DNA of 64,000 nt, taken from Serratia sp. DD3. GTDB lineage: Bacteria; Pseudomonadota; Gammaproteobacteria; Enterobacterales; Enterobacteriaceae. This document shows positions 30,777-51,375 of this stretch, piece by piece. The translations under genes were made by a program, and so were the position numbers. The notes under the pieces were generated by a model. The model saw nothing but the letters and a program-made list of their open reading frames with translations, did no database searches and had not been told where the DNA came from. The stretch is from the NCBI RefSeq assembly GCF_000496755.2, contig NZ_AYKS02000084.1, forward strand, positions 62,001 through 126,000. The letters run 5' to 3'. Position 1 is the stretch's first letter. Each line of letters begins with the position of its first letter.

Positions 30777-31155
30777 ATCGTTATACCCCCTAGGCGCCCT
30801 GCTTTAGAAAGTCCAATCATCTTGCTACTATAAATCCAAACAATAAAGGCATGACTCTCCAGTGCACTAAATTCTTTTTTTTCATAGGGATAAGCTGAAG
30901 CTTAAAACGACTTCATGTGTAAGAAAAGTGACTAGTGACATGGTCACCTGTATCAAATCCAACTCAGCGCGCCTCAAAAAGGATATGTAATCAACTGAGT
31001 CAGGCTGTTCAGCGTAACTGTTCAGCGTAACAACGTTCAAAATAGTACAATATTTGGTGAAGTTAACTTGATATATAGATACTATTGATATCTTAATTTT
31101 TTTTGCTGAATATACTTTTTTATCAAAAAATGTTTAAAAAAGTGAATGATATGCT
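30777..31155. other. Promoter region of accessory set 1
   Basis: About 380 bp of AT-rich DNA. A 13-bp direct repeat (TGTTCAGCGTAAC) occurs twice at about 31006-31031. No JUMPstart/ops sequence is present, so set 1 is probably not under RfaH. The start of the first gene is preceded by a weak ribosome site. Confidence 0.5.
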
Positions 31156-32274
31156 ATGAAAAAAAAGATTGTTATCGTAGGTGGTGGTTTTTTCGGCATG
31201 TATATTGCCGAATTTTTTGCAGAGCGGGGGCATGATGTCCAACTGTTTGAAAAAGAGTCAAACTTTATGTCTCGGGCATCATTTAACAATCAAGCACGCG
31301 TTCATAATGGTTACCATTATCCTCGTAGCATTTTAACCGCCTTAAGGTCTCGCGTATCTTTCCCTCGTTTTGTGGCTGAGTTTCGTGATTGTATCGACTC
31401 CGACTTCGAAAAGTACTATTTAATCAGCAGCAAACTAGGAAAAGTGACAGCTAATCAGTTCACCAAATTTTGTGAGCGTATTGGCGCATCTTGTGAGTCC
31501 GCCCCCTCCCACTTACAAAAGCTCACTAATCCGGCCATGATAGATGCCTGTTTTTCTGTTACCGAATATGCTTTTGACTCGTGGAAACTTCGCGATGCCA
31601 TGCTAGAGCGAGTGAAAACATCCTTAGCCAATTATCAGACAAATGTTTCAGTCGATAAGGTATGCCAGCACCAAGACGGTTTAATGGTTACCTACACGAA
31701 TACCCAGTCTGGTGAAATTGCAGAGATGTATGCTGATCATGTATTCAACTGCACTTACTCTCATATCAACTACATGTTGCAAAATTCTACTCTAGAGTTA
31801 ATCCCTCTTAAGCATGAAATGACAGAAATGTGCCTTGTGGATGTACCGGATGAGTTGAAAAAAGTTGGCTTGACGGTGATGTGTGGTCCATTCTTTTCCG
31901 TAATGCCCTTCCCCTCTGCTAAGTTGCATTCTTTTAGTCACGTTCGTTATACCCCACATTATGAATGGTTCGACAAAGACCATATCACTTATGTTGATGC
32001 TCATAGAAAATTTGATGAAGACGAAAAAAATAGTGCTTGGCACTATATGAAGAAAGATGCCATGCGCTACTTACCCATTCTAGAAGATTGTGAGTATAAG
32101 CGCTCTCTCTGGGAAGTGAAAACCTTGCTACCTCGTAGTGAATCTGATGATTCGCGCCCAATATTATTTAGAGCTAATCATGGTTTATCTGGGTTCCACT
32201 GCATTATGGGGGGAAAAATAGACAATGTATATGATGTAATCGATGCGATTACTAAGCAGCATATTGTAGATTGA
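31156..32274 (+). CDS. FAD-dependent oxidoreductase (DAO superfamily)
   Basis: The 372-residue protein has an N-terminal FAD-binding Rossmann motif (IVIVGGGFFGMYIAEFFAER, residues 5-24, then E at the end of strand 2). It is followed by the block NNQARVHNGYHYPRS, seen in DAO-type oxidoreductases of polysaccharide loci. No membrane segment or signal peptide. A likely role is oxidation of a sugar or nucleotide sugar; the substrate is unknown. It is the first gene of a tight operon: the next start is 16 bp away. GC content is lower than in the his operon. It is not a UDP-galactopyranose mutase by length and motifs, though it shares the fold. Confidence 0.75.
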   Translation: MKKKIVIVGGGFFGMYIAEFFAERGHDVQLFEKESNFMSRASFNNQARVHNGYHYPRSILTALRSRVSFPRFVAEFRDCIDSDFEKYYLISSKLGKVTANQFTKFCERIGASCESAPSHLQKLTNPAMIDACFSVTEYAFDSWKLRDAMLERVKTSLANYQTNVSVDKVCQHQDGLMVTYTNTQSGEIAEMYADHVFNCTYSHINYMLQNSTLELIPLKHEMTEMCLVDVPDELKKVGLTVMCGPFFSVMPFPSAKLHSFSHVRYTPHYEWFDKDHITYVDAHRKFDEDEKNSAWHYMKKDAMRYLPILEDCEYKRSLWEVKTLLPRSESDDSRPILFRANHGLSGFHCIMGGKIDNVYDVIDAITKQHIVD

Positions 32275-32290
32275 TAGGAGTGTTAACGCC

Positions 32291-33301
32291 GTGAAAAGTG
32301 ACTCTTTTGTTTCAGTAGTATTAAATATTGACCAACAGTTAGTTGGGATAGAAGAAAAAGTAAAACAAATTCAAGTTTATTTGGATAGCTTGTATTCTGA
32401 TTATGAAATAGTCATTATAATTCAAGGGCCTTGGGTAACAAATAGCCCAGGATATGATATGGAAACGATGTTACGCCATATCCCCAGCGTTCGTTATATT
32501 CAACTTGCCGGCTGCGTTCACAATGATGTTGCTTGGGCTGCTGGTCTTGAAAATGCCATCGGTGATTTTGTGGTACTTTTCGATCTTCAAACTGATCCAA
32601 TCAGTGCTATTTCAGGTACCGTTGAGTGCTGCAAATCAGGTATGGATGTCGTAGTGGGTGTTGCTGAACAACCTATTTCATTAGCTTATCGCTTGTTTCG
32701 TTCAATCTCAGATAAAATCCTGCAAGCTATCGACTACCACTTACCGCCACAGGCAACCAGCTTACGTTGTCTTAGTCGACGAGCGGTTAACTCAGTCACC
32801 AGTACCGGCCGTTTCCATCACCAATTTTATTTAAGAATACAAAAAACTGGCTATCCTAGTGGTTCATACTGTTACGAACTACAGCCAGACAGCTCACAAA
32901 AAAAATCCTTCTGGTGTGGTTTCCGATACTTGGTGCGTTTGATGGTATTCAACTCATCTCGACCACTACGCTGGATGTCTGGAATCGGCATGATAGGAAG
33001 TTTAGCTGCATTCATTTTTGCAGTATACAGTGTGACTATCAATATTATTAGTGGCCACGTAGTTGAGGGGTGGACAACAACTGTTCTCTTTATGTCTCTG
33101 TTATTTATGTTACAATTTGTCATGCTGGCTTTTTTTGGTGAGTACCTTGGCCGCTTATTGGATGATCGCAGTGAGCAGGCTGATTACTCAATTGTATTCG
33201 AAAAGAACAGTGCTGTTATGGTCAACCAGGATCGTGTTAATGTTCTCAGTGATTCTAGCAGTACATACAAAAATAAAGTTCAAACGGGCCGTGACCGATA
33301 A
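32291..33301 (+). CDS. GtrB/ArnC-shaped family 2 glycosyltransferase, divergent
   Basis: The 336-residue protein has a GT2 domain (residues 1-215) followed by two membrane helices (about 233-256 and 266-288), the architecture of GtrB and ArnC, which load sugars onto undecaprenyl phosphate. The LFDLQTDP segment (96-103) corresponds to the DADLQDPPE motif. However, where the family has an acidic DDGS motif this protein has QGPW (45-48), so the usual first nucleotide-binding Asp pair is missing. It may use a different donor or be a non-catalytic partner of the second GT2 encoded downstream. The start is GTG with AGGAG 10 nt upstream. Confidence 0.75.
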   Translation: MKSDSFVSVVLNIDQQLVGIEEKVKQIQVYLDSLYSDYEIVIIIQGPWVTNSPGYDMETMLRHIPSVRYIQLAGCVHNDVAWAAGLENAIGDFVVLFDLQTDPISAISGTVECCKSGMDVVVGVAEQPISLAYRLFRSISDKILQAIDYHLPPQATSLRCLSRRAVNSVTSTGRFHHQFYLRIQKTGYPSGSYCYELQPDSSQKKSFWCGFRYLVRLMVFNSSRPLRWMSGIGMIGSLAAFIFAVYSVTINIISGHVVEGWTTTVLFMSLLFMLQFVMLAFFGEYLGRLLDDRSEQADYSIVFEKNSAVMVNQDRVNVLSDSSSTYKNKVQTGRDR

Positions 33302-33342
33302 CCTATCGGCAACAAGTAGCAAAGATAATCAGGTGGAAGATA

Positions 33343-34137
33343 ATGCAAAATGCCTTAATCGGATTTTCGGGGTTTGTTGGTAGTACCCTACTGAAGCAAG
33401 CAAAGTTTGACGCACTTTATCGTTCTAACAACATTGGCGATATTGATAATAATATTTTTGATACCGTTGTATGTGCAGGCGCACCTGCGCAAAAATGGTT
33501 AGCCAACAAAGATCCAGAATCTGACCGTAAAAAAATAGACAGCCTGATTGCACATTTAAAAACAATAAAATGTAAAACGTTCATCCTTATCAGTACTGTG
33601 GATGTTTTTAAATCACCCATTGGCGTCAATGAGTCAAGTTTAGTTGACACCACAGACCTCCATGCTTATGGTCTTAATCGTTATCGTTTGGAGCAATTTG
33701 TCAAACATAATTTTGAACAGTTTTTGATAGTTCGATTACCTGGATTAGTTGGCCCAGGGCTACGCAAAAACATCATTTTTGATTTTCTTAATAGCAACAA
33801 CCTTCATTCAATCGATAGCCGCGGTGTATTTCAATTTTATCCGATGGTCAACTTGTGGTTCGATATACAAGCTTCATTGAAAGCCGAATTAAAGCTCGTT
33901 CACTTAACAAGTTCACCGCTAAGTGTGGCGCAAGTTGCTCAGCAAGGCTTTGGCATCAGTTTTGAACAGCAGTTTGACGGGGAAGCAGCCACATATGATA
34001 TGCAATCTCAATATGCATCTATACTAGGCGGCCAAGGTAATTATCAATATAGTGTTCGTGAAACGATACAAGCGATCCGCGCTTATGCTCAGTCCGAACC
34101 TATCGCGATGAAATCTGCAACTGAGGAAAAGAAATGA
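33343..34137 (+). CDS. SDR-family NAD(P)-binding protein, catalytic Lys replaced by Arg
   Basis: The 264-residue protein has a Rossmann start (ALIGFSGFVGSTLL, residues 4-17) and the Ser-containing strand LISTVDVFK typical of nucleotide-sugar epimerases and dehydratases. At the catalytic position the YxxxK motif reads Y109-G-L-N-R113, so Lys is replaced by Arg, and the fold is short for the extended class. It may be a reductase or a binding protein. It is followed by the isomerase gene with a 4-nt ATGA overlap, meaning tight coupling. AGGTGGAAG precedes the start. Confidence 0.7.
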   Translation: MQNALIGFSGFVGSTLLKQAKFDALYRSNNIGDIDNNIFDTVVCAGAPAQKWLANKDPESDRKKIDSLIAHLKTIKCKTFILISTVDVFKSPIGVNESSLVDTTDLHAYGLNRYRLEQFVKHNFEQFLIVRLPGLVGPGLRKNIIFDFLNSNNLHSIDSRGVFQFYPMVNLWFDIQASLKAELKLVHLTSSPLSVAQVAQQGFGISFEQQFDGEAATYDMQSQYASILGGQGNYQYSVRETIQAIRAYAQSEPIAMKSATEEKK

Positions 34138-34970
34138 GATTGTCCATTTCTAATATTGCTTGGGATGTAGCAGAAGATAATGCCATGGTAGGGCTTTTAC
34201 ATAAGTATCAAGTAGATGCTATTGATATTGCACCAGGGAAATATTTCGCTGATCCTATTAATGCGTCAAATACTGATATTGCTAAAGTCAAAAATTGGTG
34301 GGGTGACCACAATATTGAGATTGTTGGGATGCAGGCCCTATTATTCGGCACACAAGGGTTGAATGTATTCGGTTCTGAAGAGAGCCAGCAAGCTATGCTA
34401 TCCCATTTAACTGCAGTTTGTCGTATTGCAGTGGGTTTAGGTGCAACTCGTCTCGTTTTTGGTTCGCCACGTAATAGAGACTGTTCAGGACTCAGTGAGC
34501 AAAAAACCATCGAAACTGCGCTATCTTTCTTTCAACAACTCGCGGACATTGCACAACAGCATGGTGTAATTATTTGTCTGGAACCAAACCCGACGCACTA
34601 TGGTGCCAATTTTATGACCACCACTGAAGAAACAGCACGTATTGTTAAGTTAATCCAACACCCATCAATAAAAATGCAATTGGATACCGGCGCGATGGCA
34701 ATTAACAGCGAAAATGTTAATGATCTACTGCCTTGTTATTCAGATTTAATTGGTCATATCCATATTAGTGAAGCGGACCTGCTACCAATTGGAGATGCTA
34801 CTACAAACCACAGCGCAATCCATCACGCATTAGCTCAATATTTGCCCATGCAGGTGGCCACTATTGAAATGGTAGCAACAACAAGTGAGCCTCATTTATA
34901 CTCTATTGAGCGAGCACTGCAACACACAATCACCAATTATCGCCCTGCATTGCAGGTGAATAACATATGA
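34134..34970 (+). CDS. Sugar phosphate isomerase/epimerase-like TIM barrel
   Basis: The 278-residue protein belongs to the xylose isomerase-like TIM barrel superfamily. Metal-ligand candidates are Glu in ICLEPNPTHYG, Asp in KMQLDTGAMA, His in GHIHISEAD and the late Glu in ATIEMVATT. Family members epimerise or isomerise keto-sugars or their phosphates, or dehydrate them. It starts on the stop codon of the SDR gene (ATGA) and ends overlapping the ArnE-like gene the same way, so these three genes are made together. The substrate is unknown. Confidence 0.75.
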   Translation: MRLSISNIAWDVAEDNAMVGLLHKYQVDAIDIAPGKYFADPINASNTDIAKVKNWWGDHNIEIVGMQALLFGTQGLNVFGSEESQQAMLSHLTAVCRIAVGLGATRLVFGSPRNRDCSGLSEQKTIETALSFFQQLADIAQQHGVIICLEPNPTHYGANFMTTTEETARIVKLIQHPSIKMQLDTGAMAINSENVNDLLPCYSDLIGHIHISEADLLPIGDATTNHSAIHHALAQYLPMQVATIEMVATTSEPHLYSIERALQHTITNYRPALQVNNI

Positions 34971-35323
34971 AATGGTTGATTCTATTGTTAGGCATCGCAT
35001 CTAATGCATCAGCCAGTGTATTAATTAAGCTAGCCATGATGCCACCACGTAAATTTCCGAGTTTTACCGATCCGTTGGCTGCACTAACTAATTGGCCATT
35101 CTGGCTAGGATTAATTTTATATGGGGCAGCATTTTTACTTTATGCAGCGGCCTTAGCCTATCTTCCGTTAAACGTAGCACATCCGATATTGACAACGGGT
35201 GCTGTTGCTTCCGTTGCGTTACTTTCAGTGCTCATTTTCAATGAACCATTACACTGGACTACTGGCGCTGGCATAGCTCTGGTTATCGCTGGAGTTGCAC
35301 TGATCACTGCGCGCGTAGCTTAA
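34967..35323 (+). CDS. ArnE/EamA-type small membrane protein, probable lipid-sugar flippase
   Basis: The 118-residue protein has four predicted helices (about 2-24, 43-65, 71-91, 98-117). Its layout is that of the SMR/EamA half-size carriers, closest in pattern to ArnE/ArnF, which flip undecaprenyl-phosphate-aminoarabinose, with LPLNVAHPILTTGAVASVAL as the conserved helix-3 region. Set between two GT2 genes, it fits flipping of an undecaprenyl-phosphate-linked sugar. It could also be a drug-type SMR exporter, but the context argues against that. Only one subunit is present, unlike the ArnE-ArnF pair. Confidence 0.75.
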   Translation: MKWLILLLGIASNASASVLIKLAMMPPRKFPSFTDPLAALTNWPFWLGLILYGAAFLLYAAALAYLPLNVAHPILTTGAVASVALLSVLIFNEPLHWTTGAGIALVIAGVALITARVA

Positions 35324-35346
35324 AATAACAACAGAATGAAACTATT

Positions 35347-36159
35347 ATGAATACATTGACAAAGCAGCAAGATTCATGGCAAGTCCCATCGTTCGATATT
35401 TCCTTATGGCTTGGAAAAAAGAGTGACTATTGTGTCATTATTCCAGTTATCAATGAAGGAGAACGAATTAAAAGCCTGCTCAGCCGTATGGCTGCACTGG
35501 CAATTGCTGATATGGCAGATATTATTATCGTTGATGGCGGTAGTAGTGATGGTTCTTTAGAACTGACCAGCTTGCGAGATTTGGGTGTTCGTGGGTTATT
35601 ATTGAAAACTGGGGAAGGCAAATTAAGTGCCCAACTACGTTGTGCATATGCATTTGCCTTGGAACAGGACTATGAAGGTATTATCACGATCGATGGAAAT
35701 GATAAAGATGATCCCGAAGCCATTCCAAATTTCATTACTGCATTAAAGAATGGATTCGATTTTGTTCAAGCCTCACGCTTTCTTAACGGCGGTATTGCAG
35801 AGAACACACCTAAATCACGTGATTTAGCCATACGCTTTATGCATGCTCCGGTATTAAGTATCGCGTCAGGTTTCAAATGGACAGATACTACACAAGGCTT
35901 CCGTGCCTATAGTAAAAAAATGTTACTTGACCCGAATATGTCTATATTCCGAGATGTATTTATGACATATGAATTATTAGCTTACCTATCCTATCGCGCA
36001 CCGAAGTTGGGGTACCGGTGCATTGAACTAGCAACAATACGGCGCTATCCTAAAGGAGAAGTACCAACTAAGATAAGTAGTGTAAAAGGTAATATTTCTG
36101 TTCTTCTCGTATTATTTAAGGCAAGTTTTGGTTTATATAATATAAAGTTAAAAAAATAA
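35347..36159 (+). CDS. Dpm1-like family 2 glycosyltransferase
   Basis: The 270-residue protein is a complete GT2 domain with intact motifs: VIIPVINEG start (30-38), VDGGSSD (62-68) and the DGNDKDDPEA acidic motif (116-125). No C-terminal membrane helix is apparent, as in soluble dolichol-phosphate-mannose-synthase-like enzymes. It probably transfers a sugar to a polyprenyl phosphate. Together with the degenerate GT2 at 32291 it could form a pair in which this one carries activity. Confidence 0.82.
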   Translation: MNTLTKQQDSWQVPSFDISLWLGKKSDYCVIIPVINEGERIKSLLSRMAALAIADMADIIIVDGGSSDGSLELTSLRDLGVRGLLLKTGEGKLSAQLRCAYAFALEQDYEGIITIDGNDKDDPEAIPNFITALKNGFDFVQASRFLNGGIAENTPKSRDLAIRFMHAPVLSIASGFKWTDTTQGFRAYSKKMLLDPNMSIFRDVFMTYELLAYLSYRAPKLGYRCIELATIRRYPKGEVPTKISSVKGNISVLLVLFKASFGLYNIKLKK

Positions 36160-36195
36160 TTAATGTTTCTACATTAAAGCGATATAGGTTAGTAG

Positions 36196-37596
36196 GTGAG
36201 TTTTAATGTAAGTAAATATTCAATGATTCATTATTTTAACAGTCACAAACTGTCTCAGACAGTACTAGAGCTTAGAGATGATAATATGAAAGACGTAATG
36301 AAAATATTATTCCTATTCTTTTTGGGCTTTTCAATCCTATTTTTTCGCGAGCCCTATGCATTCCTAGATGCTAACGTTTATGCAGAAGATGGTATATGGA
36401 CAGCAAAAGCATTGCGTGATGGCTGGATATCCACATTTTTACATGCACGCTCAGATTATTATGTTTTCTTCAACATTGCTTTACTTTTTATTTCCTCAAA
36501 AATTAGTTATATAGTCAGTGGCAGCCCTCTTTCTTTTTTACCGCAAGCCATAGCGATAGTTTCATATTCTTTCTATTCTGTTGTTGCTATATTAATCTAT
36601 AAATGCTTGAGAATTTATTCTAATCGTTTCTTTTCAATGGCAGGGTTTCTATTTTCTATATTAGTTCCCCTTGGCGGATCTACCAGTGAGAGTATAGGCA
36701 CTTTAGTCCAAGTTGGATTTTACATGCCAATCATCTCGGTATGCCTCCATTTATTAAGAGGCGAGTGCAGGGTAAAATATTTCAAATACATTTTTGATAT
36801 ATTTATATTTCTTGCAGCTGCAACAAATCCAGTTTGTTTTGCTGTTACTGGTATTTATTTGGCTTTGCGGATAAAATATTTTATAAAAAATAAACATGCC
36901 CTGCTTGAATTCCTGCCTTTAATTACATCATTATCATTACTTTTTTTAATCATTATTCCTAATATGGATGGACACGGAGGCATATTAGGCACTCCAAATC
37001 CGAAAAATATTATTGAAATGGTTACGGCAAGATCTATATTATATAATTTCATATTCCCTTGGTACAGTGTATTTAATGATTTAGCTTCTATTTTGTTTAG
37101 CTTTCTATTCCTCTCAATGTGTATCTTTGCATATATAAGCACTAAAAATGATAAAGCTAAAAATGCTATAATATTTCTATTCTCTGTAATGGCAGTGTAC
37201 ACTATAGCCACTATAAGTGGGCGGTATGGATTAACGGGAATTCTTAATAATTATACGGCAACATATCCTGATAGATATTTTATGGGTATAAATGTAATTT
37301 CATCTACTCTCTTCGTTATAGTATTGTCTCAATTATCCAATATCTATTTTTTAAATAAAATTTCATATGCATTGGTTATAATTGTTTTAATTCTTCATAT
37401 AATGAATGTACTGAACGGCTCCGTTATAAGTAATTCGACACTAAAATATAACTCTTCAAATAAATTTAAAAGTAGTTTATGTCACCCAGAAATAGCAACT
37501 GACGGGTTTTTATTAATACAAATTGAACCGCCTGTGCCTAAATTTAAAATGAAGGTACCAGCTAAATATATTAATGATATAAACTGTACAGATTAA
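36196..37596 (+). CDS. Polytopic membrane protein, GT-C-like glycosyltransferase candidate
   Basis: The frame (466 residues from a GTG at 36196; an ATG at 36286 giving MKDVMKILFLFF is equally plausible) encodes roughly ten membrane helices. After the first helix the outer loop carries YAEDGIW with E64-D65. An acidic pair in the first periplasmic loop is the hallmark of GT-C enzymes that use lipid-linked sugars. The C-terminal 60 residues are hydrophilic. It is much more AT-rich than the genes before it. It would be the transferase that moves the flipped sugar to lipopolysaccharide or another surface polymer. Family assignment is by topology, not by clear sequence match. Confidence 0.6.
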   Translation: MSFNVSKYSMIHYFNSHKLSQTVLELRDDNMKDVMKILFLFFLGFSILFFREPYAFLDANVYAEDGIWTAKALRDGWISTFLHARSDYYVFFNIALLFISSKISYIVSGSPLSFLPQAIAIVSYSFYSVVAILIYKCLRIYSNRFFSMAGFLFSILVPLGGSTSESIGTLVQVGFYMPIISVCLHLLRGECRVKYFKYIFDIFIFLAAATNPVCFAVTGIYLALRIKYFIKNKHALLEFLPLITSLSLLFLIIIPNMDGHGGILGTPNPKNIIEMVTARSILYNFIFPWYSVFNDLASILFSFLFLSMCIFAYISTKNDKAKNAIIFLFSVMAVYTIATISGRYGLTGILNNYTATYPDRYFMGINVISSTLFVIVLSQLSNIYFLNKISYALVIIVLILHIMNVLNGSVISNSTLKYNSSNKFKSSLCHPEIATDGFLLIQIEPPVPKFKMKVPAKYINDINCTD

Positions 37597-37618
37597 TACT
37601 CAGGGCAAGATTACGAAA

Positions 37619-37681
37619 CACCGCCCCGCCAAGGACAGACGCTAGGTACTCAGTGTCTATCCTTGCTCGGTGCATCTTTTT
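37619..37681 (+). terminator. Terminator after the GT-C-like gene
   Basis: CACCG (37619) pairs with CGGTG (37668) and CAAGGACAGAC with GTCTATCCTTG in a two-part stem, followed by CATCTTTTTC. It closes the set 1 operon. Confidence 0.65.
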
Positions 37682-37739
37682 CGTAATCCTGCTTTAAACG
37701 TAACCGTCCCAGCCCATAGACATAAAAAAGGGGACGACC

Positions 37740-37782
37740 ATCACTCGATCCCACATTGCCTATCGAGTGATTCTTTTTCTTT
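37740..37782 (+). terminator. Second terminator before the acyltransferase gene
   Basis: ATCACTCGAT and ATCGAGTGAT form a perfect 10-bp stem with a 12-nt loop followed by TCTTTTTCTTT. Two terminators in a row isolate the acyltransferase gene from set 1. Confidence 0.75.
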
Positions 37783-37957
37783 GGCACACTCTGGGTATAA
37801 AAAAGATAAATCACTTTCAAGCGCCACCCAAAATCCTTACAGCTTCTTGACTATGACTAAGCAAGTGTTAATATTTACTCCATTTATATCGGGACAACTA
37901 CCCGAGTACGATACATTAATTATTAGAATGGTTTTGGTTTTTTATCACAGGAATTTC

Positions 37958-38968
37958 ATGAACAGAAAAAATTGCTTCGATACAGTAAGACATATGGCTG
38001 CTCTTATGGTGTTATTCTCACATCATTACGCCCTATCTGGTCAATTAGAGCCATATATACTTAACTTTGAAAGTCTGGGGGGGATTGCCGTTATAATTTT
38101 CTTTAGTATTTCTGGGTTTTTAATTTCAAAGTCAGCGATGAATAGCAATGACTTTGTGGATTTTATGTCCAAGCGTGTTAAACGTATATTCCCCGCTTTA
38201 ATTCCTTGCTCATTAATTATGTTTATAGTAATTGGTGGCTTTGTTAACCGTCATCAACCAAATGAATACTTCACCGCTGAAGTTTTCAAAAATATAATAA
38301 GCACAATTTCTTTAAATGGTTTTACCAATGACGGCATCTCTGATAATTTTATACATCCAGGAATCAATGGCAGTTTATGGACACTGCCTCTTGAATTCTT
38401 ATGTTATTTAATCACTGGTCTTGCTGTAGCAACATGGAAGAGAGCTGAATTCTTCACTTTTGCTTTCATTTTCATGGTATTCATGTCAATTATACTATTG
38501 ATCAATGAGTATCAAATACTCGTGTTTTCTATTCCTCTGTGGTTATTTTTTCTTCGCGGATCGTCTTTCTTTCTTGGGGCTGTTTTAGCTCTCAATTATG
38601 ACAAGTGGAAAAAAAAGAATGTTTGTTTGTTCATAGCCATATTTCTTTTCATGTACGCTTTTTCCACTTATGGGAAAAAAATAGAATACACCGTTACTTG
38701 CTATATTCTAGTGTCATTTATGACAATACTTATATGCACATCTTTTAATGACTTCTTAGTAAACGGGAGGTTCGATTTTTCATATGGAATCTACATTTAT
38801 GCTTTCCCTGTACAGCAGATCATAATTAACTACACCAACATGCCGTTCTTCCTTAGCATGTCGGTCAGCGCTGCGATTACGATAATTTTAGCTGCGTGCT
38901 CATGGCATTTTGTTGAGAAAAAAGCACTTTCTAAATATAGCAAAAAAATCTTACTCAAAAACGAATAG
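37958..38968 (+). CDS. Acyltransferase family 3 (OafA/YrhL type) membrane protein
   Basis: From the ATG at 37958 (CAGGAA 8 nt upstream) the protein has 336 residues and about ten helices. It shows the acyltransferase-3 pattern: the early FDTVRHMAALMVLFSHHY with the catalytic-region His pair, GGIAVIIFFSISGFLIS, and KRVKRIFPALIP. Such proteins O-acetylate surface sugars using acetyl-CoA from the cytoplasm. The open frame extends to 37670, but that part lies across the terminators and is not coding. No C-terminal SGNH domain is present. It probably decorates one of the polysaccharides made nearby. Confidence 0.85.
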   Translation: MNRKNCFDTVRHMAALMVLFSHHYALSGQLEPYILNFESLGGIAVIIFFSISGFLISKSAMNSNDFVDFMSKRVKRIFPALIPCSLIMFIVIGGFVNRHQPNEYFTAEVFKNIISTISLNGFTNDGISDNFIHPGINGSLWTLPLEFLCYLITGLAVATWKRAEFFTFAFIFMVFMSIILLINEYQILVFSIPLWLFFLRGSSFFLGAVLALNYDKWKKKNVCLFIAIFLFMYAFSTYGKKIEYTVTCYILVSFMTILICTSFNDFLVNGRFDFSYGIYIYAFPVQQIIINYTNMPFFLSMSVSAAITIILAACSWHFVEKKALSKYSKKILLKNE

Positions 38969-38991
38969 TTTTTTTATTTCAGGATAATGAC

Positions 38992-39105
38992 ATGAATAAT
39001 AATGACTCTGGCCTGCTACTAATGGATATTTACAAGGAAGGTAGCTCAGATCAAGCAATGTCTGGTACTGATGATAAATCGACTGCCTTTACCGCTTTAA
39101 TATAA
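38992..39105 (+). CDS. Small ORF of 37 codons
   Basis: MNNNDSGLLLMDIYKEGSSD is the start of a 37-residue frame with AGGA 7 nt before the ATG, 23 bp after the acyltransferase stop. It has no recognised similarity, membrane segment or motif. It may be a small protein or the start of a deleted gene. Confidence 0.3.
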   Translation: MNNNDSGLLLMDIYKEGSSDQAMSGTDDKSTAFTALI

Positions 39106-49788: not shown

Positions 49789-51375
49789 ATGGAATGGATC
49801 GCAGATCCAACAATTTGGGCTGGCTTAGCCACATTGGTTGTGTTGGAAATTGTCTTAGGGATTGACAACCTGATATTCATCGCCATTCTGGCGGAAAAAT
49901 TACCCAAAAAACAACGTGATAAAGCTCGCGTCATCGGTTTATTACTGGCGCTGCTGATGCGTTTGGCGCTGTTGGCCTCAATCTCCTGGTTGGCTACGCT
50001 AACCAAACCACTCTTTTTTGCTGTCGGCCACCATTTCAGCGGTCGCGACCTGATTATGCTGATTGGTGGACTATTCCTGCTGTTTAAAGCCACTATGGAG
50101 TTAAACGAGCGGCTAGAAGGCAAAGATGATAACCACCACGGCCCACAGAAAGGTGCGCGTTTCTGGCCGGTCGTGGCACAGATTGTGGTACTGGATGCAG
50201 TATTTTCACTAGATGCCGTCATTACAGCTGTCGGCATGGTGGAAGAATTGGCAGTGATGATGATTGCCGTCTGTATCGCCATCGGCTTGATGTTATTAGC
50301 CAGTAAACCGCTGACCCGTTTTGTCAATGCTCACCCCACCATCGTTATTCTCTGCCTGAGTTTTCTGCTGATGATTGGCTTTAGCCTGGTTGCTGAAGGG
50401 TTCGGTTACTCTATTCCCAAAGGCTATCTCTATGCGGCCATCGGTTTCTCGGTAATGATCGAAGCATTAAATCAGCTTGCCCAATTTAATCGCCGCCGTT
50501 TTCTGTCAAAAGTTCGCCCGCTGCGTGAACGTACCGCTGAAGCCGTATTGCGGATGTTAAGTGGCAAACATGAAGAGGCAGAAGTCGACAACCATTCAGC
50601 TAACTTGTTGGCGGACAGCAACAGCGACAATGGCGAAATCTTTAACCAGCAAGAGCGCCATATGATTGAGCGTGTGCTGGGTATGGCCCAGCGTACTGTC
50701 AGTAGCATCATGACCTCACGCCATGATGTTGTGTATCTTGGGCTAAACGATCCGCAAGATAAACTGACCAAACTGCTGGAAAAGAACCAACATACGCGCA
50801 TTGTCGTTACTGAAAACCGTGCCAGTGATGAACCACTCGGGGTGATCCATACTGTTGATGTATTAAAGCAGCAGTTGCAGCAAGCCCAGTTGGATTTACG
50901 CGCGCTGGTACGTCAACCGCTGATTTTCCCTGAACAATTGACGTTACTCTCCGCACTGGAGCAGTTCCGCCAGGCTAAAACCCATTTTGCGTTTGTCGTC
51001 GATGAGTTTGGCTCTGTCGAAGGGGTGGTAACGTTGACGGATGTGATGGAAACCATCGCCGGTAATCTACCAGAAGCGGATGAAGAAATTGATGCCCGCC
51101 ACGATATTCAGCAAACCACCGACGGCTGTTGGATTGCCAATGGGCATATGCCGATGGAAGATTTAGTGCTGTATGTTCCACTGCCCCTTGAAGAGAAGCG
51201 CGAATATCACACCCTGGCGGGGTTGTTGATGGAGCACTGCCAACGCATCCCAAATACAGGGGAACAATTAAAAATTGGTGATTGTCTGTTTGAACCGTTA
51301 GAGATCAGTAGTCATCGTATTGTGAAAGTAAAAATTACGCCGCAACTCCCGATAAATGAAGACGAGGATCTTTGA
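49789..51375 (+). CDS. yegH: YegH, TerC-CBS-CorC_HlyC membrane protein
   Basis: The 528-residue protein has a TerC-type membrane domain ([20 protein letters not shown] start; [32 protein letters not shown]), two CBS domains (about 300-430; [30 protein letters not shown]) and a CorC_HlyC domain at the end. Length and sequence match E. coli YegH (527), which sits beside wza at the edge of the colanic acid cluster. The paralogue YoaE (518) is less similar in context. TerC proteins are linked to metal efflux. This marks set 3 as occupying the colanic acid position. Confidence 0.9.

What the first reader, a model, noticed from the sequence alone, without database searches (positions are those of the whole stretch)
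31156..37596. Undescribed lipid-linked sugar modification cassette between hisI and gnd
Seven genes in one tight + strand operon combine sugar-making enzymes (FAD oxidoreductase, SDR-like protein, TIM-barrel isomerase) with the three parts of a Gtr/Arn-type surface modification route: polyprenyl-phosphate glycosyltransferases (32291, 35347), a four-helix ArnE-like flippase (34967) and a GT-C-like transferase with an outer-loop Glu-Asp (36196). Known gtr cassettes carry only gtrA-gtrB-gtrC; the arn route makes aminoarabinose with different enzymes (ArnA, B, D), none of which are here. The operon therefore looks like a pathway for an unusual sugar, made or remodelled in place, flipped on undecaprenyl phosphate and added to LPS or another polymer. 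Three pairs of ATGA or short-gap couplings support a single function.
Basis: partly seen in the sequence, partly recalled or inferred. Interest (0 to 1): 0.8.

Follow-up and report, generated by a model that had tools for sequence, protein, structure and literature searches.

The report
Cassette adding rare surface sugar branches
A seven-gene bacterial cassette that probably rebuilds a sugar while it hangs on a membrane lipid, flips it outwards and adds it to the cell-surface polysaccharide; its Escherichia coli relative sits beside the gene cluster of a serogroup whose O162 form carries a rare deoxysugar branch.

The parts
31156..32274 (+). A: DAO-type FAD oxidoreductase; proposed oxidation of a ring hydroxyl to a ketone
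   Evidence: PF01266 E 2.4e-16; best NCBIfam GlpA, 31.4 of 552.8 bits; motif NNQARxHxGYHYPRS conserved
32291..33301 (+). B: GtrB/ArnC/PgfS-like GT2 with C-terminal membrane helices; no VDDGS-type Asp and no DxD; proposed lipid-sugar-binding partner or diverged transferase
   Evidence: PgfS E 1.2e-19, ArnC E 1.9e-11, both far below cut-offs; motif counts
33343..34137 (+). C: SDR-like NAD(P)-dependent oxidoreductase, Tyr109 kept, Arg113 at the place of the usual Lys (recalled); proposed ketone reductase
   Evidence: weak RmlD match below cut-off; invariant columns in 11 sequences
34134..34970 (+). D: xylose-isomerase-like TIM barrel of 3-epimerase type; proposed C3-H abstraction next to a ketone (epimerisation or loss of 4-OH)
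   Evidence: PF01261 E 1.8e-22; nearest PDB D-tagatose/D-psicose 3-epimerases; Glu150, Asp184, His210, Glu245 in 81 of 81
34967..35323 (+). E: four-helix SMR/EamA-like protein, proposed flippase of the lipid-linked sugar
   Evidence: EamA E 1.9e-7; EmrE 31.8, ArnF 29.7 bits, both below cut-off; Asn13 at the EmrE Glu14 place in 72 of 72
35347..36159 (+). F: DPM1-like GT2 with intact motifs, proposed polyprenyl-phosphate hexose synthase
   Evidence: PF00535 E 1.2e-10; motif counts; 66% identical to the GT2 half of fusion P0066
36196..37596 (+). G: exchangeable GT-C transferase (probable start 36286), proposed periplasmic transfer to the O polysaccharide; conserved YAEDG
37670..38968 (+). H: acyltransferase-3, possible extra O-acetylation gene, not part of the conserved core
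   Evidence: PF01757 E 2.5e-23; a relative seen in 6 of 80 loci

Best explanation
A self-contained three-component glycosylation cassette for the O polysaccharide that makes and adds a rare sugar of the 4-deoxy-D-arabino-hexose kind. F (perhaps with B) puts a common hexose on undecaprenyl phosphate. A oxidises a ring hydroxyl (proposed: C2), D removes C3-H beside the ketone and either epimerises or expels the 4-hydroxyl, and C reduces the carbonyl(s). E flips the lipid-linked sugar and G, the exchangeable GT-C transferase, adds it as a side branch to the O chain in the periplasm. Shown here by sequence or model: gene set and its conservation, GT-C fold of G, intact GT motifs of F, conserved residue set of D, E. 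coli association. Inferred: every reaction, the carbons, the order, the acceptor and that the window makes the same sugar as E. coli O162. The confidence given is for the system plus this kind of sugar; the system alone I put at 0.85, and the on-lipid order at about 0.6 if the system is right.
For: Co-occurrence of A-F. Window G and E. coli G are both GT-C by model without clear sequence likeness; F-G fusions. G slot: 64 of 80 loci have a polytopic protein inside or within 400 bases of the cassette, in 29 sequence clusters. E. coli: A-G behind gnd, intact in 2 and with IS4 at the start of A in 3, in the same 5 genomes that match L081's rfb glycosyltransferase part at >=99%; the other 320 of 325 rfb-matching genomes give no megablast match to the cassette. 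That this rfb is of O101/O162 and not O89 type follows by exclusion: strain 26561 (O89m/Onovel32) matches its methyltransferase-GT4 part at 89.7% over 100%, whereas O89 reference proteins there are 47% and 42% identical to 26561 (PMC6128206, passage). PMC13168486 (abstract, introduction and passages read): O162 differs from O101 by a 4-deoxy-D-arabino-hexose branch, and genes directly behind gnd are hypothesised to modify O162, not O101 because of a transposon. Stereochemistry (own reasoning): D-arabino at C2, C3, C5 is glucose or galactose with C2 and C3 both inverted and O-4 lost, as expected if a 2-ketone, C3-H abstraction and loss of 4-OH give a 2,3-dione that is then reduced.
Against: No biochemical result. 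D resembles 3-epimerases more than the inosose dehydratase IolE (24 bits, cut-off 290). A divergent A-C-D trio without B, E, F exists (L100), so the trio may work on a nucleotide sugar. Two GT2 genes are unexplained. No call told the serotypes of the five E. coli strains, and the O162 reference AB812067 could not be read; the strains named O162 and O101 in PMC10072801 (2012C-4221, 6409; passage) are not among the five, and I did not check whether they are in the collection. With IS4 in place RefSeq still annotates A from a later start, so loss of A is not certain. PMC6128206 says that the O89 reference also has ten genes between gnd and ugd; their identity is not told. G of the window differs from G of E. 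coli, so linkage or even sugar may differ. In 16 of 80 loci no polytopic protein was found beside the cassette (3 at contig ends), and polytopic proteins are common in these loci anyway (140 of 529 ORFs of >=350 aa, the slot genes included), so that count is weak evidence alone.
Confidence: 0.6

Rival explanations
1. Same cassette, but A, D and C convert a nucleotide sugar in the cytosol first; F and B then load the finished rare sugar on Und-P. (A rival on the order only; it overlaps with the best explanation on system and sugar.)
For: Trio A-C-D without B, E, F in L100; most deoxysugars are made on nucleotides (established knowledge).
Against: The trio is nearly always near a polyprenyl-phosphate-type GT2: F in 17 of the 19 loci; B keeps membrane helices while lacking donor motifs, which fits a lipid-sugar partner.
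Confidence: 0.35
2. The cassette makes another rare sugar (for example an epimer without deoxygenation) in the window; 4-deoxy-D-arabino-hexose is made elsewhere in E. coli O162.
For: D is nearest to 3-epimerases; window G unlike E. coli G.
Against: Window and E. coli A-F are 60-75% identical; between galF and hisIE of L081 no other sugar-making genes than galE and ugd are annotated besides the cassette.
Confidence: 0.3
3. The acceptor is not O polysaccharide but lipid A, core, pilin or another protein, as for ArnT or PMT.
For: Best structural rows for G include PMT and ArnT; I did not examine the 80 loci for O-antigen genes.
Against: Window: next to gnd and an O-antigen-type cluster; E. coli: next to the rfb locus of a serogroup whose two members differ by a side branch.
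Confidence: 0.15

Closest known systems
Gtr / three-component glycosylation systems (GtrA-GtrB-GtrC; pentofuranose systems of PMC11127046, passages read)
   Same: Und-P GT, small flippase, serotype-specific polytopic transferase; constant part plus exchangeable transferase
   Different: three built-in redox/epimerase-type enzymes and a second GT2; flippase SMR-like. The PNAS 2024 authors wrote that they knew of no other examples of epimerases in O side-chain glycosylation systems
Genes behind gnd in E. coli O101/O162 (Liu et al. 2020, not held; cited through PMC13168486)
   Same: homologous A-F at the same place in 5 genomes with that rfb type
   Different: opposite orientation to gnd and a different GT-C gene in the window
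Arn pathway (ArnC, ArnD, ArnE/F, ArnT)
   Same: sugar finished on Und-P (recalled), SMR-like flippase, GT-C transferase
   Different: no ArnA, ArnB or ArnD seen among the genes
DprE1/DprE2 epimerisation of decaprenyl-phosphoryl ribose
   Same: FAD oxidase plus reductase, here only proposed to act on a polyprenyl-linked sugar
   Different: A is DAO-type, not the DprE1 family (recalled), and a TIM barrel is added
D-tagatose / D-psicose 3-epimerases; IolO; IolE
   Same: family and four conserved metal-ligand-type residues in D
   Different: far below every curated cut-off listed

Membership tests
Three-component (Gtr-type) glycosylation system | polyprenyl-phosphate GT2 with donor and metal motifs | tested here: met
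   F: the Asp of DGGS and of IDGN kept in 77 of 79 each; sequence only
Three-component (Gtr-type) glycosylation system | small membrane flippase | tested here: inconclusive
   E is SMR/EamA-like; no transport test
Three-component (Gtr-type) glycosylation system | polytopic GT-C-like terminal transferase that varies between strains | tested here: met
   (two models); other loci by helix count only
Arn (aminoarabinose) pathway | ArnA, ArnB, ArnD | tested here: not met
   no such match in the rows shown for the 8 proteins (for A the best 25 of 88 rows)
SMR drug exporter | membrane Glu (EmrE Glu14; position recalled) | tested here: not met
   Asn13 in 72 of 72
SMR drug exporter | score above a curated SMR exporter cut-off | tested here: not met
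   EmrE 31.8 of 226 bits needed; it does pass the broad Pfam cut-off of Multi_Drug_Res, 27.3 of 23.7
ArnE/ArnF flippase | score above the curated cut-off | tested here: not met
   ArnF 29.7 of 99, ArnE 22.6 of 92
DprE1 family | VAO-type FAD domain (recalled) | tested here: not met
   A matches DAO PF01266; no VAO-type row among its 13
D-tagatose/psicose 3-epimerase family | Glu-Asp-His-Glu metal set (roles recalled) | tested here: met
   81 of 81
D-tagatose/psicose 3-epimerase family | 3-epimerase activity on a ketose | not testable with these tools
   needs an assay
IolE inosose dehydratase | score above curated cut-off | tested here: not met
   24 of 290 bits
E. coli O162 side-branch genes | homologous A-F beside gnd | tested here: met
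   60-75% identity to L081; the O162 reference locus itself was not read
E. coli O162 side-branch genes | makes 4-deoxy-D-arabino-hexose | not testable with these tools
   needs O-chain chemistry

The most novel reading that the evidence does not exclude
Deoxygenation on the lipid carrier: an FAD oxidase, a TIM-barrel dehydratase acting like IolE, and an SDR turn Und-P-glucose (or -galactose) through a 2-keto and a 2,3-diketo-4-deoxy stage into Und-P-4-deoxy-D-arabino-hexose, which explains in one stroke the lost O-4 and the inverted C2 and C3. It would be a polyprenyl-linked, not nucleotide-linked, deoxysugar pathway, spread sporadically through beta- and gammaproteobacteria.
Probability: 0.3. 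Interest if true: 0.8.

Novelty: new variant of a known kind. Interest (0 to 1): 0.55.

Why it matters
A 2024 paper called the synthesis of the two 4-deoxy-D-arabino-hexose residues of Franconibacter pulveris O1 unclear, for want of the locus sequence (PMC11231755, passage), and I found no description of how this sugar is made in the held papers by searches (subscription journals are mostly not held). The cassette gives a defined candidate gene set, tells which gene should set the acceptor (G) and which should set the sugar (A, C, D), and would help to read serotypes of E. coli and other genera from sequence.

Full report
Observation. C-D and D-E overlap by four bases; the other gaps are 16 to 41 bases. 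G+C falls from 47-57% in the his region to 40-42% over A-F and 33-34% over G and the following acyltransferase, which suggests two imported pieces. The host is close to Serratia by HisD (91% to Serratia sp. UGAL515B_01). Beyond gnd, mostly on the - strand, lies an O-antigen-type cluster (Polysacc_synt flippase, two GT2s, RmlD, nucleotidyl transferase, epimerase, Bac_transf, phosphomannomutase type, ManC type, group 1 glycosyltransferases, Wzy_C).

A travelling set. A scan of one genome per species for C gave 134 confirmed relatives, of which the best 80 were kept. tblastn of the window proteins against these 80: A 80, C 80, D 80, B 79, F 78, E 71, H 6, G 3, the best matches of A-F all on one strand. 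There are two main layouts, B-A-C-D-E-F and A-B-C-D-E-F, with a few reshuffles. In seven loci A and B are like the window's (62-71% and 46-69% identical); in the others A is 38-46% and B, where found, 23-29% identical. Because these loci were picked by C, I also drew genomes evenly from four orders (GTDB sense; the first includes Moritella): matches in 11 of 394, 5 of 397, 2 of 194 and 5 of 200 genomes (limit 1e-30 in the first, 1e-20 in the others; each sample contains its seed genome, chosen because it has the set). In the 19 non-seed loci, profile searches found A in 17, D in 18, F in 17, B in 16 and E in 11; L118 (contig starts at C) lacks A, B, E; L120 has only a weak C; L100 has A, C and D alone. 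In L123 A and B lie about 4 kb from C. At least two of the 19 (L103, L123) are also among the 80. So A-C-D is a module, usually joined to F and B.

The proteins. A is a DAO-type FAD protein. C is a divergent SDR with invariant Tyr109 and Arg113 in 11 aligned sequences. D is a TIM barrel nearest in the PDB to D-tagatose and D-psicose 3-epimerases (best E 7.9e-7), with Glu150, Asp184, His210 and Glu245 in 81 of 81 sequences. E is SMR/EamA-like; the place of the EmrE Glu14 (recalled) is Asn in 72 of 72. F has intact GT2 motifs (77 of 79). B is GtrB/ArnC-like with membrane helices; at the VDDGS place seven of the eight sequences of the window's kind have no Asp (the exception is L077, read), while 70 of 72 of the other kind keep one; neither kind has a DxD. 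I read B as a diverged partner, not as a proven transferase.

The sugar. blastn found the core in 7 of 5426 E. coli genomes. Five carry it directly behind gnd, and the same five are the ones with a >=99% match to L081's rfb glycosyltransferase-methyltransferase part; 320 further genomes match that part at lower identity and give no megablast match to the cassette. L081's rfb is labelled O89/O101/O162 family; its methyltransferase-GT4 part is 89.7% identical over its whole length to strain 26561 (O89m/Onovel32), unlike the O89 reference (47% and 42% protein identity to 26561; PMC6128206, passage), so O101/O162 remains. Two copies are intact (L081, L086); three have IS4 some 13 bases inside A (L085, L087, L088), though RefSeq annotates a shorter A behind it. 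The two other carriers are a hybrid strain (L082) and a plasmid (L083). PMC13168486 states that O162 differs from O101 by a 4-deoxy-D-arabino-hexose branch, and that genes directly behind gnd are hypothesised to modify O162 but not O101 because of a transposon in the latter (introduction and passages). Against full certainty: no call gave serotypes of the five, the O89 reference also has unnamed genes between gnd and ugd, and two strains named O162 and O101 in PMC10072801 (passage) are not among the five. Relatives of window G occur in Citrobacter braakii, Franconibacter helveticus and Pantoea; C. braakii PCM 1531 and Franconibacter pulveris O1 are named in print as having this sugar (titles in reference lists and one passage), which is only genus- or species-level support.

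Mechanism. Relative to glucose or galactose the sugar has lost O-4 and has C2 and C3 inverted. An oxidase making a 2-ketone (A), an enzyme that takes the proton from C3 beside a ketone (the D family) and a reductase (C) can do this if loss of the 4-hydroxyl follows proton abstraction: the product would be a 2,3-dione, reduced twice. The second reduction could be by C again or by reduced A. This is inference; a plain 3-epimerase role for D fits its sequence better and would leave the deoxygenation unexplained.

Verdict. A new variant of the three-component glycosylation systems with its own sugar-conversion trio. The link of the E. coli genes with the sugar is a published hypothesis; new here are the widespread six-gene core, the exchangeable GT-C slot with model support, the diverged B, the separable A-C-D trio, the extension to the window and the chemical proposal.

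Noticed in passing
L100:7322-10027 (-): Divergent A-C-D trio without B, E or F, next to TPR, sulfotransferase-like and GT-like genes: a second context of the same chemistry.
   Followed up: partly
window 37670-38968: Acyltransferase-3 gene between the cassette and gnd, as low in G+C as G; possible O-acetylation of the same O chain.
   Followed up: no
window 31000-38999: G+C steps from 40-42% (A-F) to 33-34% (G, H): the transferase part may have been exchanged separately.
   Followed up: partly
L083 (E. coli plasmid pCUPF09A): A full set A-F with a further gene behind it lies on a plasmid near IS elements and resistance genes.
   Followed up: no
L084 (Psychrobacter plasmid pA22P4): A 10.8 kb plasmid more than half of which is a cassette relative.
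   Followed up: no
window 49789-51375: TerC/CBS/CorC-type membrane protein on the + strand inside the O-antigen-type cluster.
   Followed up: no
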